Positions 36,224-40,663 of a DNA stretch of 64,000 nucleotides are shown one piece after another. The DNA is from Thiohalocapsa sp. GTDB taxonomy: Bacteria > Pseudomonadota > Gammaproteobacteria > Chromatiales > Chromatiaceae. The notes beneath the pieces are model-generated. The model made no database searches and was not told the DNA's origin. It saw nothing but the letters and a program-made list of their open reading frames with translations. Numbering within the stretch: position 1 is the first letter of the stretch; each line of letters begins with the position of its first letter. The stretch spans positions 1 through 64,000 of the forward strand of contig JAIPFF010000025.1 of NCBI GenBank assembly GCA_021736785.1. The letters are read 5' to 3'. The position numbers and the translations under genes were made by a program.

Positions 36224-36811
36224 ATGGCAGCGAAGAAGATCCTGATGTTGGTCGGAGATTATGTCGAAGACTACGAAGTCATGGTCCCGTTCCAGATTCT
36301 GACCATGGTCGGGCATACCGTGCATGCAGTCTGTCCCGACAAACGGGCCGGGGACAGCGTGCGTACGGCCGTCCACGACTTCGAGGGCGATCAGACCTAC
36401 AGCGAGAAGCCCGGTCACAACTTCGCGCTGAATGCGACTTTCGACGAAGTCGACGTGGAGCGCTACGACGCACTGGTGATTCCGGGCGGCCGCGCGCCGG
36501 AGTATCTTCGTCTCAATGCGCGCGTCATCGAGATGGTGCGCCACTTCTCCGAGCAAGCCAAGCCGATCGCGTCGATCTGTCACGGACAGCAGATTCTGGT
36601 CGCCGCCGGCGTGCTCGAGGGGATGACCTGCACCGCTTACCCGTCGATCCGGCCGGACATCGAAATGGCCGGCGGCAGTTGGCACGAGGTGGCGGAAACC
36701 TTCGCCAATGCCCACACCCACGGGATGCTGGTGACTGCGCCCGCTTGGCCGGCGCATCCGGAGTGGATGCGCCAGTTCCTCGACGTGCTCGGCAGCCGTA
36801 TCGAGCCTTGA
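36224..36811 (+). CDS. DJ-1/PfpI-family protein
   Basis: [50 protein letters not shown] nucleophile elbow. GGAGG RBS before the ATG at 36224. Confidence 0.92.
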
Positions 36812-36896
36812 GGCCGGTCGCGCCTCGAGCTTGATTGCGCGCGGGCCCGCCGTCGATTCGCTTATCCGTTCAGCCCGACTCAGTCCGACCGTCGTC

Positions 36897-37337
36897 ATGG
36901 AGCACCGCGTTTTCGTCTACGGCACCCTGCTGCGGGGCGAGGTGAACCACCACCTGCTGGAAGACGCCCGCTGTTGCGGGCCTCATCGCACCGAGCCGCG
37001 CTTTACGCTGTTCGCGCTGGGCGCTTATCCGGGCGTCGTCGACGGCGGAAATACCGCCGTCGTCGGCGAGGTCTATGTGGTCAACGAGATTCAGCTGCTG
37101 CGCCTCGACCGGCTCGAAGACTACCCGCGTCTGTACGATCGCCGCCTGATCGCCACCCCTTACGGCCGCGCCTGGCTCTACCTGTATCGAGGCCGCGTAC
37201 GCGACCGGCACGCCATCCGCGGCGGCGACTGGCGCTGCCACGCGCGGCGGCGAGCGCGCGGTCCGGGCGACGCGCGCCGCCGCGATGACGACGGCGGGGG
37301 TCGGAGCCGGCGCAGGCGTTTCTCGCTTTACGGGTGA
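36897..37337 (+). CDS. Gamma-glutamylcyclotransferase-like (AIG2/GGACT) protein with an Arg-rich C-terminal tail
   Basis: VFVYGTLLRGEVNHHLLEDARCCG; YPGVVDGGNTAVVGEVYVV; LDRLEDYPRLYDRR. Confidence 0.85.
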   Translation: MEHRVFVYGTLLRGEVNHHLLEDARCCGPHRTEPRFTLFALGAYPGVVDGGNTAVVGEVYVVNEIQLLRLDRLEDYPRLYDRRLIATPYGRAWLYLYRGRVRDRHAIRGGDWRCHARRRARGPGDARRRDDDGGGRSRRRRFSLYG

Positions 37338-37393
37338 CGCATCCGCGCCACCCGTCAGTCGTCCCCAGGGACCGCACTCACCGGAGAATCCGC

Positions 37394-37855
37394 ATGTCCG
37401 AACAAGGCCGCTTTACGATCCACCTGGATCAGCAGGAGGATTATCAGATCAACGTGCGTTTCGACTGGAAGCGCGCCGCCGATCTGCTGATGGACGAGCC
37501 GCCTCCGCTCGGCGAGACGTCCGGGCCCAACGCCTCGCGACTGCTGGCCGCGGCCGCCGCCAACTGCCTCTCCGCGAGCCTGCTCTACTGCTTGTCGAAG
37601 GACGAGCCGCCGGCAAACAGCCTGCGCGCCGAGGCCACCTGCATCGTCGTGCGAAATGACAAGAAACGCCTTCGCATCGGCGGCCTCGAGGTCAAGCTGA
37701 TCGTCGGCGACGCATTGACTTCCTCGCGGCGCTTCGAGCGCTGCAAAGACTTGTTCGAAGATTTCTGCGTCGTCTCCGCCAGTATCCGCGAGGGCATTCC
37801 GATCGCGGTGACTGTCGAAGACGAGGGCGGCAACGTGCTGCACAGCGCGCAATAA
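37394..37855 (+). CDS. OsmC-family protein
   Basis: DEPPPLGETSGPNASRLLAAAAANCLSASLLYCL; RCKDLFEDFCVVSASIREGIPIAVTVED. Confidence 0.85.
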   Translation: MSEQGRFTIHLDQQEDYQINVRFDWKRAADLLMDEPPPLGETSGPNASRLLAAAAANCLSASLLYCLSKDEPPANSLRAEATCIVVRNDKKRLRIGGLEVKLIVGDALTSSRRFERCKDLFEDFCVVSASIREGIPIAVTVEDEGGNVLHSAQ

Positions 37856-37906: not shown

Positions 37907-38701
37907 ATGCCGCCCCCGATCGAGCATTCCTCGCCGGCCCCGGTCCGCGTGCTGGACGTGCACTCGCCCGCCGATCTGGAGTCGGTATTGGCGGCGGTCG
38001 TGCCGACGACGCCGCGGCCGGTGCTGGTGCTGGTGGGCGGCGCCTCGGGACTGGCGCCGGAGGTCGCTCGACGCCTTCTCGACTGCTTTCGGGTGCGGCT
38101 TTGTCCGTTGCTCGAGCGGCTCGGTGCCGTCGTCGTCGACGGCGGCACCGATGCCGGCGTAATGAAGGTCATCGCCCTTGCGCGGCAGCAAGCGGCAGCC
38201 CGCTTTGCGCTGCTCGGTGTGGCTGCTCGCGGCACGCTGGCGGATCCGGCCGCGGATGAACGGACCGAGGCCCGCCCGGGGCAGGCACGGCCCGAGCCTC
38301 GTCACGACGCGCTGCTGCGTGTACCCGGTGATGCCTGGGGTGACGAGATCCCGTGGATGAACCGGGTCGCGGGCATGCTCGCCCGAGATGCACCGTCGGT
38401 GACGCTGGTCGCCGGCGGCGGCGGTGTCACCCTGCTGGACGTGCAGGCGAGTTTGGGGCAGGGGCGGGCGGTCCTTGCGCTGGCCGGCAGCGGCGGCGTC
38501 GCCGATCGCTTGGCCGCGGCCGCCCTGGATGCCCGAGCCCCGGCGGATCTGCCGTTCGTGCCGTTGCTGATCCATGCCGTGGCGGCCGACGACGGCTGGG
38601 CCGCACTCGAGGTCTGCCTCGGGGAGTCGCTGGGGGGCGGGGTTGCCGCGGACGGGGCAGCATCGGCGCCGGTTGCGCCGGCGGGGCGAAACGTTTGCTG
38701 A
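37907..38701 (+). CDS. SLOG-superfamily LSDAT (TRPM-type, prokaryotic) nucleotide-sensing domain protein
   Basis: LVGGASGLAPEVA; GAVVVDGGTDAGVMKVIALAR; FALLGVAARGTL; RVPGDAWGDEIPWMNRVAGMLA; SVTLVAGGGGVTLLDVQASLGQGRAVLALAGSGGVADRLA, in the expected LSDAT order. Confidence 0.78.
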   Translation: MPPPIEHSSPAPVRVLDVHSPADLESVLAAVVPTTPRPVLVLVGGASGLAPEVARRLLDCFRVRLCPLLERLGAVVVDGGTDAGVMKVIALARQQAAARFALLGVAARGTLADPAADERTEARPGQARPEPRHDALLRVPGDAWGDEIPWMNRVAGMLARDAPSVTLVAGGGGVTLLDVQASLGQGRAVLALAGSGGVADRLAAAALDARAPADLPFVPLLIHAVAADDGWAALEVCLGESLGGGVAADGAASAPVAPAGRNVC

Positions 38702-40419
38702 TTCGCCGCTCCGTGCTCGTCTGCGGCGCCGGCCCGCTGGCCGACGAGGTGGAGTCCGCGATGCGCCGCGGCCCGCGCCGCGTCGAGCGCATCTACGACG
38801 GCGCCCGCCTGGCCGCCGGCCGCGGGCGCTGGGCGGCCGTGCTGCTGGCTGGCCGGCTGGATGTCGACGCAGTGGCACCGGCGCTGGCGGTGCTGCGGGA
38901 GCGCCGACGTCCGCCGCGGGTGCTCGCACTCGGGACCGCGCTGCATCCGCCGCCGCTGCCGGCGAGCGACGATACCGACGCTCCGCCCGCCGCAAGCATC
39001 GACCTGGAGCGCCGAGCCGCGCGTATGCTGCTGCATCGCTGGCCGTTGCACCTGGGCGCCGATCCGGCGTTCGGCCAAGACATCCATGTCGTGATCGCCG
39101 GTGCCGGCGCCCTCGCCCGGGCCCTGCTGCCGCAAGTTCTGCGGGTGGCGCACTACAGCGAGCGTCCGCCGACGGTGACCGTTCTCGACGAGGACGCGGC
39201 GGTTAGGGAACACGACTTCTCGCGAGACTATCCTCAAGCGCACCGGTTCAGCCGGCTGCGCTTCCGGCCGCCGCGCGAGGCGGCGCTGTCCGGCGAGGCG
39301 CCGGTGACCGGCGTGTTTGTCTGCGACGGAGATGCGCGCAAAGGGACGGAGTCGGCGCTGCGGCTGCGCGATCGGATCGCCGAGGAGCAGGGGGCGTCGC
39401 CGCCGATCCTGCTCGACATCGGCAATGCCGTCGCGACCGGCGAGCTGGCCGATTGGGACGGTCAGATTATTCCGGTCGCCTGGCGGCGCATGGTGCTCTC
39501 TCAGCAGGCGTTGCTCGACGATCACGACGATGACTTGGCTCGGGTCATTCACGCACACTATCGCGACACCACCGCCGCTCAAGGCCGCGACCCGTCGGCA
39601 GAGCCCGCGGGGCGCCCGTGGGAGACGTTGGCGGAGCCCTATCGCGACGCCAACCGCCATCAGGCCGACCACCTCCTGGCCAAGCTCGCCGTCACCGACT
39701 GCCGTGCCGTGCCCGAGGAACTGGTCGAATCGTTCGCGTTCGCGCCGACCGAGATCGAGCGACTGGCGATCATCGAGCACGCACGCTGGGCCGCGGACCG
39801 CTATCTGGCCGGCTGGCGCTATGCACCGCAGCGCGACAACGCACGCAAGCATCATCCGCAACTCATCCCCTACGACGCGCTTTCCGGGCCGATGAAAGAC
39901 CTCGACCGGTTCGCCGTTCGGCTGGTGCCTGCGCTGCTGGCGCGCTCCGGGCTCGGAATCGTGCGCATGCTGATTGTCGCGGTGCGCGGGCCGGGACCCG
40001 GCGAGGGCCGCCTGCGGGGGCTGTCTGACCAAGTGCTGGCGCGGCTGCGGGCGCGCTACCCCGACCGCGGGCTGATCATCGCCTCCGACCTCGAAGATGC
40101 GGCGTCGCGCGCCTTTGCGCGGCGCGCGCTGGAGCATTTCGGTGCCGGGCTGTTCTTGTTGAGCACGCGTCCTTTGCAAGCGCAGCTGGCGGCGCAAGCT
40201 TCAGCCGACGCGCGCATGGAGCTGCTCGCGCTCGCGGCACGTGCCGAGCGGCGCATCGACGTCGACGGGGTCGAGGGACTCGCGCGCTGGATGGCCGCGC
40301 GGGCCGAGATCCTGGTCGAGCTCGGCACAGCCGGCCGCGGCGGCGTGCCGGCCGGGCAGCCGCGAAAACGTGTGCATGTCGATCCCGACCGCGGAGCCGA
40401 CTGGAATTTCGAGTACTGA
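38695..40419 (+). CDS. Tandem Rossmann (TrkA-N-like)-RyR domain protein with a possible C-terminal SLOG-like domain
   Basis: VLVCGAGPLADEVE and HVVIAGAGALARALLPQVL Rossmann motifs; RyR-type LAEPYRDANRHQADHLLAKLA...EIERLAIIEHARWAADRYLAGWRYAPQRDNARKHHPQLIPYDALSGPMKDLDRFAV. Start uncertain: TTG 38695 overlapping the upstream stop, or GTG 38713. Confidence 0.78.
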   Translation: MLIRRSVLVCGAGPLADEVESAMRRGPRRVERIYDGARLAAGRGRWAAVLLAGRLDVDAVAPALAVLRERRRPPRVLALGTALHPPPLPASDDTDAPPAASIDLERRAARMLLHRWPLHLGADPAFGQDIHVVIAGAGALARALLPQVLRVAHYSERPPTVTVLDEDAAVREHDFSRDYPQAHRFSRLRFRPPREAALSGEAPVTGVFVCDGDARKGTESALRLRDRIAEEQGASPPILLDIGNAVATGELADWDGQIIPVAWRRMVLSQQALLDDHDDDLARVIHAHYRDTTAAQGRDPSAEPAGRPWETLAEPYRDANRHQADHLLAKLAVTDCRAVPEELVESFAFAPTEIERLAIIEHARWAADRYLAGWRYAPQRDNARKHHPQLIPYDALSGPMKDLDRFAVRLVPALLARSGLGIVRMLIVAVRGPGPGEGRLRGLSDQVLARLRARYPDRGLIIASDLEDAASRAFARRALEHFGAGLFLLSTRPLQAQLAAQASADARMELLALAARAERRIDVDGVEGLARWMAARAEILVELGTAGRGGVPAGQPRKRVHVDPDRGADWNFEY

Positions 40420-40440
40420 GGGGATCTGATCTGGGCGGGC

Positions 40441-40500
40441 GGAGTTTGGCGGAGTTTGGCGGAGTTTGGCGGAGTTTGGCGGAGTTTGGCGGAGTTTGGC
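40441..40500. repeat. Tandem 10-bp repeat GGAGTTTGGC, six perfect copies, with degenerate copies to about 40530
   Basis: Directly visible in the sequence 22 bp downstream of the RyR gene stop. Confidence 0.98.
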
Positions 40501-40663
40501 GTGGTTTGGCGGAGTTGTGCGGGTTTGGGCGGGGCTGAGAGGGCAGCGGCCGGGGGGGGGCGCCCGAGCGCCGCCGCGCTTGCCGGGAGAGACCATGCTT
40601 ACCGCGTTGGTTTAGAATCCCGTCTTACGCCGATGCCGAAACCGGACTTGTCGCCGATCAGCC

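What the first reader, a model, noticed from the sequence alone, without database searches (positions are those of the whole stretch)
37907..40419. Two-gene LSDAT (TRPM-type SLOG) + RyR-domain module: candidate nucleotide-sensing/conflict system
Sequence: two overlapping plus-strand ORFs. The first has the ordered motifs GGASGL, DGGTDAGVM, LLGV, WGDEIPWM and LVAGGGGVTLLDV-GRAVLALAGSGGVAD expected of a prokaryotic LSDAT/SLOG domain related to the TRPM N-terminus. The second has two Rossmann/TrkA-N-like GAG(P/A)LA segments and a clear RyR domain (EPYRDANRHQAD...EHARWAADRYLAGWRY...KHHPQLIPYDALSGPMKDLD). Knowledge: SLOG, LSDAT and RyR domains have been linked by comparative genomics to nucleotide-derived-ligand systems in immunity and signalling, and both occur in animal ion channels. 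Inference: this is a soluble sensor pair. Neither ORF has an obvious TM segment, so the effector is unknown.
Basis: partly seen in the sequence, partly recalled or inferred. Interest (0 to 1): 0.85.

Follow-up and report, generated by a model that had tools for sequence, protein, structure and literature searches.

The report
TRPM-like and ryanodine-receptor-domain gene pair
Purple sulfur bacteria carry two neighbouring genes for soluble relatives of the nucleotide-sensing parts of two animal calcium channels (TRPM2 and the ryanodine receptor), both with the nucleotide pocket largely intact, which points to an ADP-ribose- or adenine-nucleotide-responsive control module rather than an anti-phage system.

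Summary
37907-38701(+) encodes an LSDAT_prok (prokaryotic TRPM-type SLOG) protein. 38695-40419(+) encodes a RyR-domain protein whose true start is about 38695, giving a 7-base overlap. Both fold confidently in AlphaFold2. The LSDAT's nearest solved relatives are the ADP-ribose-binding MHR1/2 domains of TRPM2; the second protein's RyR region matches the nucleotide-bound Repeat12 domain of animal RyRs.

Across 197 genomes of the order, LSDAT (29) never occurs without RyR (62). It is adjacent in 27 of 29, and the two proteins co-diverge. RyR often lacks LSDAT, including in all nine other genomes of the genus.

New here: RyR residues H362, W365, H387 and D404 align without gaps to the ligand-binding and catalytic residues of phage RyDEP, a 2'/3'cADPR glycosidase reported in 2026. 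Relatives outside the family are mostly membrane proteins with RCK (TrkA-N) domains plus RyR, so this looks like a soluble descendant of a channel gating ring.

The conflict reading is not supported: no PADLOC hit, no close viral or plasmid relatives, a fixed chromosomal site beside ordinary genes, no TIR in the host, and no association with TIR across the order. Best reading: a chromosomal ADP-ribose/adenine-nucleotide sensing (possibly turnover) pair. Ligand and output are inferred.

The parts
37907..38701 (+). LSDAT_prok (TRPM-type SLOG) protein, 264 aa
   Evidence: Pfam PF18171 7.3e-56; AF2 pLDDT 88.6; Foldseek top hits TRPM2 chanzyme, E 1.4e-13; profile vs PDB: TRPM2 chanzyme 2.7e-15
38138..38164 (+). 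DGGTDAGVM loop (res 78-86), equivalent of the TRPM2 beta5-alpha3 loop that clamps ADPR
   Evidence: aligned to TGGTNTGVM of srTRPM2; D78, GGT and GVM in 20/20 relatives; role in TRPM2 from PMC6759353
38336..38338 (+). W144 of WGDEIPWM: adenine-stacking position (srTRPM2 F268, hsTRPM2 Y295)
   Evidence: ungapped local alignment; W in 19/20, one X; PMC11479946, PMC6759353. Ribose Arg R275/R302 is M151 here (I/L/M in the family)
38486..38494 (+). GSG (res 194-196), equivalent of the phosphate-facing alpha7 N-terminus in TRPM2
   Evidence: aligned to DGSG / EGSG of TRPM2
38695..40419 (+). RyR-domain protein, 574 aa (TTG start, overlaps LSDAT stop by 7 bases)
   Evidence: Pfam PF02026 4.2e-12; AF2 pLDDT 92.2; start set by alignment of relatives
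38695..38994 (+). N-terminal alpha/beta segment (res 1-100), Rossmann-like first loop CGAGPLA
   Evidence: DSSP of the AF2 model; loop comparison
39076..39504 (+). Second Rossmann/RCK-like segment (res 128-270), loop AGAGALA
   Evidence: aligned to GxGxxG loops of several TrkA_N-RyR membrane relatives
39562..39978 (+). R12/RyR region (res 290-428)
   Evidence: Foldseek to RyR3 Repeat12 with ATP, E 8.1e-6, 190 columns; profile vs PDB RyR, best 1.1e-36
39778..39780 (+). H362 = RyDEP catalytic H75
   Evidence: ungapped HMM alignment with DyoEdafos gp78; 49/49 conserved; PMC13232231
39787..39789 (+). W365 = RyDEP W78 = adenine-stacking Trp of RyR Repeat12
   Evidence: 48/49 conserved; PMC12627627
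39853..39855 (+). H387 = RyDEP H100 (phosphate contact)
   Evidence: 47/49 conserved
39904..39906 (+). D404 = RyDEP catalytic D117
   Evidence: 48/49 conserved
39952..40416 (+). C-terminal alpha/beta region (res 420-574) of unknown family
   Evidence: AF2 model; no significant hhalign match to the LSDAT or to the Rossmann segments
36224..37855 (+). Context, not shown to be functionally part: PfpI (36224-36811), GGACT (36897-37337), OsmC-like (37394-37855), co-directional upstream
   Evidence: Pfam; the block also exists in RyR-less genomes

Best explanation
The two genes encode a cytosolic adenine-nucleotide/ADP-ribose signalling pair of purple sulfur bacteria. The RyR protein descends from the cytosolic gating ring of an RCK-type (TrkA-N) membrane protein that lost its membrane part. 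Its RyR domain binds an ADP-ribose-type or other adenine nucleotide and might, like phage RyDEP, hydrolyse a cyclic ADP-ribose isomer. The LSDAT protein binds a related ligand in a TRPM2-MHR1/2-like cleft and acts through, or on, the RyR protein, since it never occurs without it. Output is probably regulation of a partner such as a transporter (TrkH- or MCE-type) in ordinary stress or redox physiology, not phage killing. Shown: domain identities, folds, pairing, co-divergence, conservation of pocket and catalytic-position residues, membrane-type relatives. Inferred: ligand, catalysis, physical complex, output.
For: Domains and folds. Pairing: 29 LSDAT genomes are all RyR+, p=9e-18, and 2e-5 within phototrophs alone; intergenic gap mostly under 40 nt; distance matrices of 15 pairs correlate r=0.90, p=1e-4. 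LSDAT: nearest PDB sequences are the TRPM2 chanzyme and human TRPM2; the GGTxxGVM loop, the adenine-stacking aromatic and GSG are kept. RyR: H362/W365/H387/D404 equal RyDEP H75/W78/H100/D117 without a gap; R369 and R380 match, by spacing from the Trp, RyR1 R885/R896, which contact nucleotide phosphates. Gating-ring origin: five relatives score for both TrkA_N and RyR, and most of the eight non-Chromatiaceae relatives tested have N-terminal hydrophobic segments. A RelA_SpoT-TPR-LSDAT-RyR single protein exists (L172). TrkA itself gates TrkH through ATP/ADP (PMC6987127 abstract).
Against: The ribose-binding Arg of TRPM2 is absent in the LSDAT (M151), so ADPR itself may not be the ligand. The second Rossmann loop is degenerate in most Chromatiaceae. 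Six of eight phage RyDEP homologues tested bound the signals but none of those eight cleaved them, so conserved residues do not prove catalysis, and these residues are conserved across PF02026 generally. RyR frequently lacks LSDAT. No generator of a cyclic ADPR (TIR) was found in the host genome. Neighbours PfpI/GGACT/OsmC are synteny background, so they say little about function.
Confidence: 0.45

Rival explanations
1. Anti-phage/conflict module: the pair senses or controls an immune nucleotide signal.
For: LSDAT belongs to the SLOG superfamily used in Thoeris-like systems (PMC9503650); RyR-domain proteins degrade or sequester Thoeris signals in phages (PMC13232231); patchy LSDAT distribution, 7 changes on the RyR tree.
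Against: No PADLOC hits, no close viral or mobile-plasmid relatives, a conserved chromosomal site, no co-occurrence with TIR genes, no TIR or STALD in the host, no effector domain.
Confidence: 0.15
2. TrkA-like regulator: the RyR protein is a soluble gating-ring subunit for a TrkH-type K+ channel encoded elsewhere, tuned by adenine nucleotides; LSDAT modulates it.
For: TrkA_N-RyR membrane relatives; three TrkH genes in the host genome.
Against: No TrkH gene was noticed beside the RyR loci examined (neighbours were not systematically scanned for it); the second nucleotide loop is degenerate in most members.
Confidence: 0.2
3. Regulator of an MCE lipid-transport system (MlaE-MlaF-MCE-PqiC), controlling it by nucleotide status.
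For: RyR is directly followed by these genes in 15 of 60 loci, gaps mostly under 20 nt, including beside a divergent short RyR protein (L079, L097, L098).
Against: Not adjacent in the window, in other Thiohalocapsa or in Halochromatium; may be shared synteny. Gene names of this operon rest on sequence inspection, not on a family scan.
Confidence: 0.12

Closest known systems
TRPM2 MHR1/2 (LSDAT_euk) ADP-ribose-binding domain
   Same: Fold and sequence; GGTxxGVM loop, aromatic-GxE motif and GSG phosphate cap
   Different: Free-standing soluble protein; ribose-binding Arg (R275/R302) replaced by M151
Phage RyDEP (DyoEdafos gp78), RyR-domain 2'/3'cADPR glycosidase (PMC13232231)
   Same: Same domain family; all four named ligand/catalytic residues align without a gap
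   Different: Window protein is a four-fold larger chromosomal protein with Rossmann segments and a C-terminal region; host has no detected TIR signal source; activity untested
Animal RyR Repeat12 domain
   Same: Fold, adenine-stacking Trp and phosphate Arg positions
   Different: Not part of a calcium channel; single RyR Pfam match
TrkA/RCK gating-ring proteins and TrkA_N-RyR membrane relatives (L174, L175, L177, L180, L080)
   Same: Two Rossmann-type segments followed by RyR
   Different: No transmembrane part; second glycine-rich loop altered; extra C-terminal region
Thoeris (ThsA SLOG/STALD + ThsB TIR)
   Same: SLOG-superfamily sensor of ADPR-type signal is the analogy
   Different: No TIR, Sir2 or STALD in the pair; no defence context

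Membership tests
LSDAT_prok (PF18171) | Score above Pfam gathering cut-off over most of the profile | tested here: met
   189 bits vs 25.4, profile 1-175/195
RyR domain (PF02026) | Score above cut-off | tested here: met
   46.6 bits vs 27.4
TRPM2-type ADPR site | Adenine-stacking aromatic | tested here: met
   W144, 19/20 relatives
TRPM2-type ADPR site | Ribose-binding Arg (R275/R302) | tested here: not met
   M151; I/L/M in all 20
RyDEP-type cADPR glycosidase | H75/D117 dyad, W78, H100 | tested here: met
   H362/D404, W365, H387
RyDEP-type cADPR glycosidase | Hydrolysis of 2'/3'cADPR | not testable with these tools
   needs purified protein
RCK/TrkA gating ring | TrkA_N Pfam match | tested here: not met
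   none in the window protein up to E=10; met in five relatives
Known anti-phage system | PADLOC match or defence neighbourhood | tested here: not met
Thoeris | TIR (ThsB) and STALD (ThsA) in the genome | tested here: not met
   none in the own genome

The most novel reading that the evidence does not exclude
A chromosomal bacterial ADP-ribose second-messenger circuit in which the RyR protein hydrolyses or sequesters a cyclic ADPR-type signal and the TRPM2-like LSDAT reads the signal or its product: the two ADPR-linked regulatory domains of animal calcium channels working together in one bacterial operon.
Probability: 0.2. Interest if true: 0.85.

Novelty: new variant of a known kind. Interest (0 to 1): 0.6.

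Why it matters
LSDAT and RyR domains are known in animals as sensor parts of TRPM2 and ryanodine receptors, both linked to NAD-derived signals. A small soluble bacterial pair with both pockets largely kept, genetically linked to each other, is a simple system in which to ask what these domains originally sensed. The RyDEP residue match turns a vague 'nucleotide sensor' into a concrete, testable prediction: binding or cleavage of cyclic ADP-ribose isomers by a chromosomal RyR protein.

Tried and rejected
Defence reading by PADLOC, viral, plasmid and TIR co-occurrence searches: all negative; the mad2 hits are ordinary methyltransferases, one of them the PrmB-like gene. Redox reading from PfpI/GGACT/OsmC neighbours: dropped as direct evidence because the block also stands in RyR-less phototrophs. 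C-terminal region as a second SLOG: hhalign against LSDAT and the Rossmann segments gave nothing. NCBIfam gave no useful name. The founding SLOG paper (10.1093/nar/gkv1267) is not held, so whether it already noted an LSDAT-RyR association could not be checked; paper searches found no such report. One LSDAT was first missed by the gene caller (L125) and recovered by tblastn. The phototrophy association (58 of 62 RyR genomes are puf+) is probably shared ancestry and was not used as functional evidence.

Full report
What is there. The two ORFs are real. ORF1 (37907-38701, +) scores 189 bits to LSDAT_prok and ORF2 46.6 bits to RyR. The long version of ORF2 (GTG 38353) is not the gene: relatives begin at the residues encoded from about 38695, so the genes overlap by 7 bases. 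The host is a Thiohalocapsa-like member of the Chromatiaceae (nearest named relatives) with photosynthetic reaction-centre genes.

Structure. AlphaFold2 gives pLDDT 88.6 for the LSDAT; its best PDB matches are TRPM2 chanzyme structures (E 1.4e-13), and a profile built from 20 relatives hits TRPM2 first. ORF2 models at pLDDT 92.2: an N-terminal alpha/beta segment, a second Rossmann-like segment, a RyR region and a C-terminal alpha/beta region. Foldseek finds the RyR3 Repeat12-ATP complex over 190 columns (E 8.1e-6).

Ligand sites. TRPM2 holds ADPR between an aromatic residue (srTRPM2 F268, hsTRPM2 Y295) and the GGTxxGVM loop, with the phosphates at the N-terminus of helix alpha7 and the adenosine ribose held by an Arg (PMC6759353, PMC11479946). 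The LSDAT keeps the loop, the aromatic (W144) and GSG, but not the Arg (M151). Phage RyDEP, described in a May 2026 preprint (PMC13232231), is a RyR-domain glycosidase with H75, D117 (catalytic), W78 (adenine) and H100 (phosphate). I fetched DyoEdafos gp78 and aligned it to the family profile: 43 residues without a gap put H75/W78/H100/D117 on H362/W365/H387/D404, conserved in 49, 48, 47 and 48 of 49 proteins. The phosphate-binding Arg positions of RyR1 (885, 896) correspond by spacing to R369 and R380, 48/49 each. The preprint says these positions are conserved in the RyR family generally and that most phage homologues bind without cleaving, so this predicts binding more strongly than catalysis.

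Distribution. In 197 genomes of the order, LSDAT above cut-off is in 29 and RyR in 62. Every LSDAT genome has RyR (p=9e-18; p=2e-5 within phototrophs); 27 of 29 are adjacent (one of these, G121, inferred across two contig ends), the exceptions being two genomes (G088, G091) with LSDAT elsewhere. Genomes are related, so these p-values overstate independence. RyR stands alone in 33, including the other nine genomes of the genus. On the RyR tree LSDAT needs 7 changes against 14.3 for shuffled labels, and pairwise distances of the two proteins correlate at r=0.90: old linkage with several losses or transfers. In the phylum at large both families are rare (1 and 8 of 399 over cut-off, the window's own genome included).

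Neighbourhood. Upstream PfpI, GGACT and OsmC genes are co-directional and close, but the same block exists in most RyR-less phototrophs tested, so RyR and LSDAT occupy a variable slot after it. Downstream, 15 of 60 loci have MlaE, MlaF, MCE and mostly PqiC-like genes (named by inspection), also beside a divergent short RyR protein. In the window the next genes are a methyltransferase, thioredoxin, DUF1249 and an Rrf2-type regulator (the last named by inspection).

Origin. RyR relatives in Planctomycetota, Burkholderiales, Verrucomicrobiota and others mostly have N-terminal hydrophobic segments (L176 and L178 do not; L178 is cut by its contig end), and five of those scanned score for TrkA_N as well as RyR. 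The Chromatiaceae protein lacks the membrane part, and its second glycine-rich loop has changed. One Actinomycetota MAG encodes RelA_SpoT, TPR, LSDAT and RyR in one chain.

Defence. PADLOC finds nothing for the pair and only generic methyltransferase matches nearby. Viral contigs gave no confirmed relative; plasmids gave one weak RyR hit and no LSDAT. The host genome has no TIR_2, STALD or ThsB_TIR match, and TIR genes are independent of RyR and LSDAT across the order (p=0.45, 0.84).

Verdict. A real, conserved, apparently unstudied pair of nucleotide-type sensor proteins. The strongest new lead is the exact match to the RyDEP residues. Ligand, enzymatic activity, complex formation and output are inferences to be tested.

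Noticed in passing
L172:3-2210: Single polypeptide RelA_SpoT-TPR-LSDAT-RyR (735 aa, N-terminus cut by the contig end) in an Actinomycetota MAG, linking an alarmone-type synthetase domain to both sensor domains.
   Followed up: partly
L133, L139, L147, L156, L171 and L079, L097, L098: RyR gene directly followed by MlaE-MlaF-MCE-PqiC lipid-transport genes, also beside a divergent short RyR protein.
   Followed up: partly
window 40438-40528: Tandem array of a 10-base unit GGCGGAGTTT, about 9 copies, just after the RyR stop codon.
   Followed up: no
L080:7324-9870(-): 849-aa protein with two strongly hydrophobic N-terminal segments, TrkA_N and RyR in a member of the same family without reaction-centre genes; it also carries a long C-terminal extension.
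   Followed up: partly
L126, L130, L134: GGACT and OsmC fused into one 314-aa protein upstream of RyR.
   Followed up: no
L185-L199: Short (about 300-370 aa) Bacteroidales proteins with a C-terminal RyR domain.
   Followed up: no
phage records H2-H12, H33: Gordonia and Erwinia phages carry RyR-domain-like proteins; a weak Pseudomonas phage match (E 0.3) is annotated 'Anti-CRISPR protein'.
   Followed up: no
G000 and the 197-genome set: RyR is strongly associated with phototrophy (58 of 62 are puf+), probably shared ancestry.
   Followed up: partly
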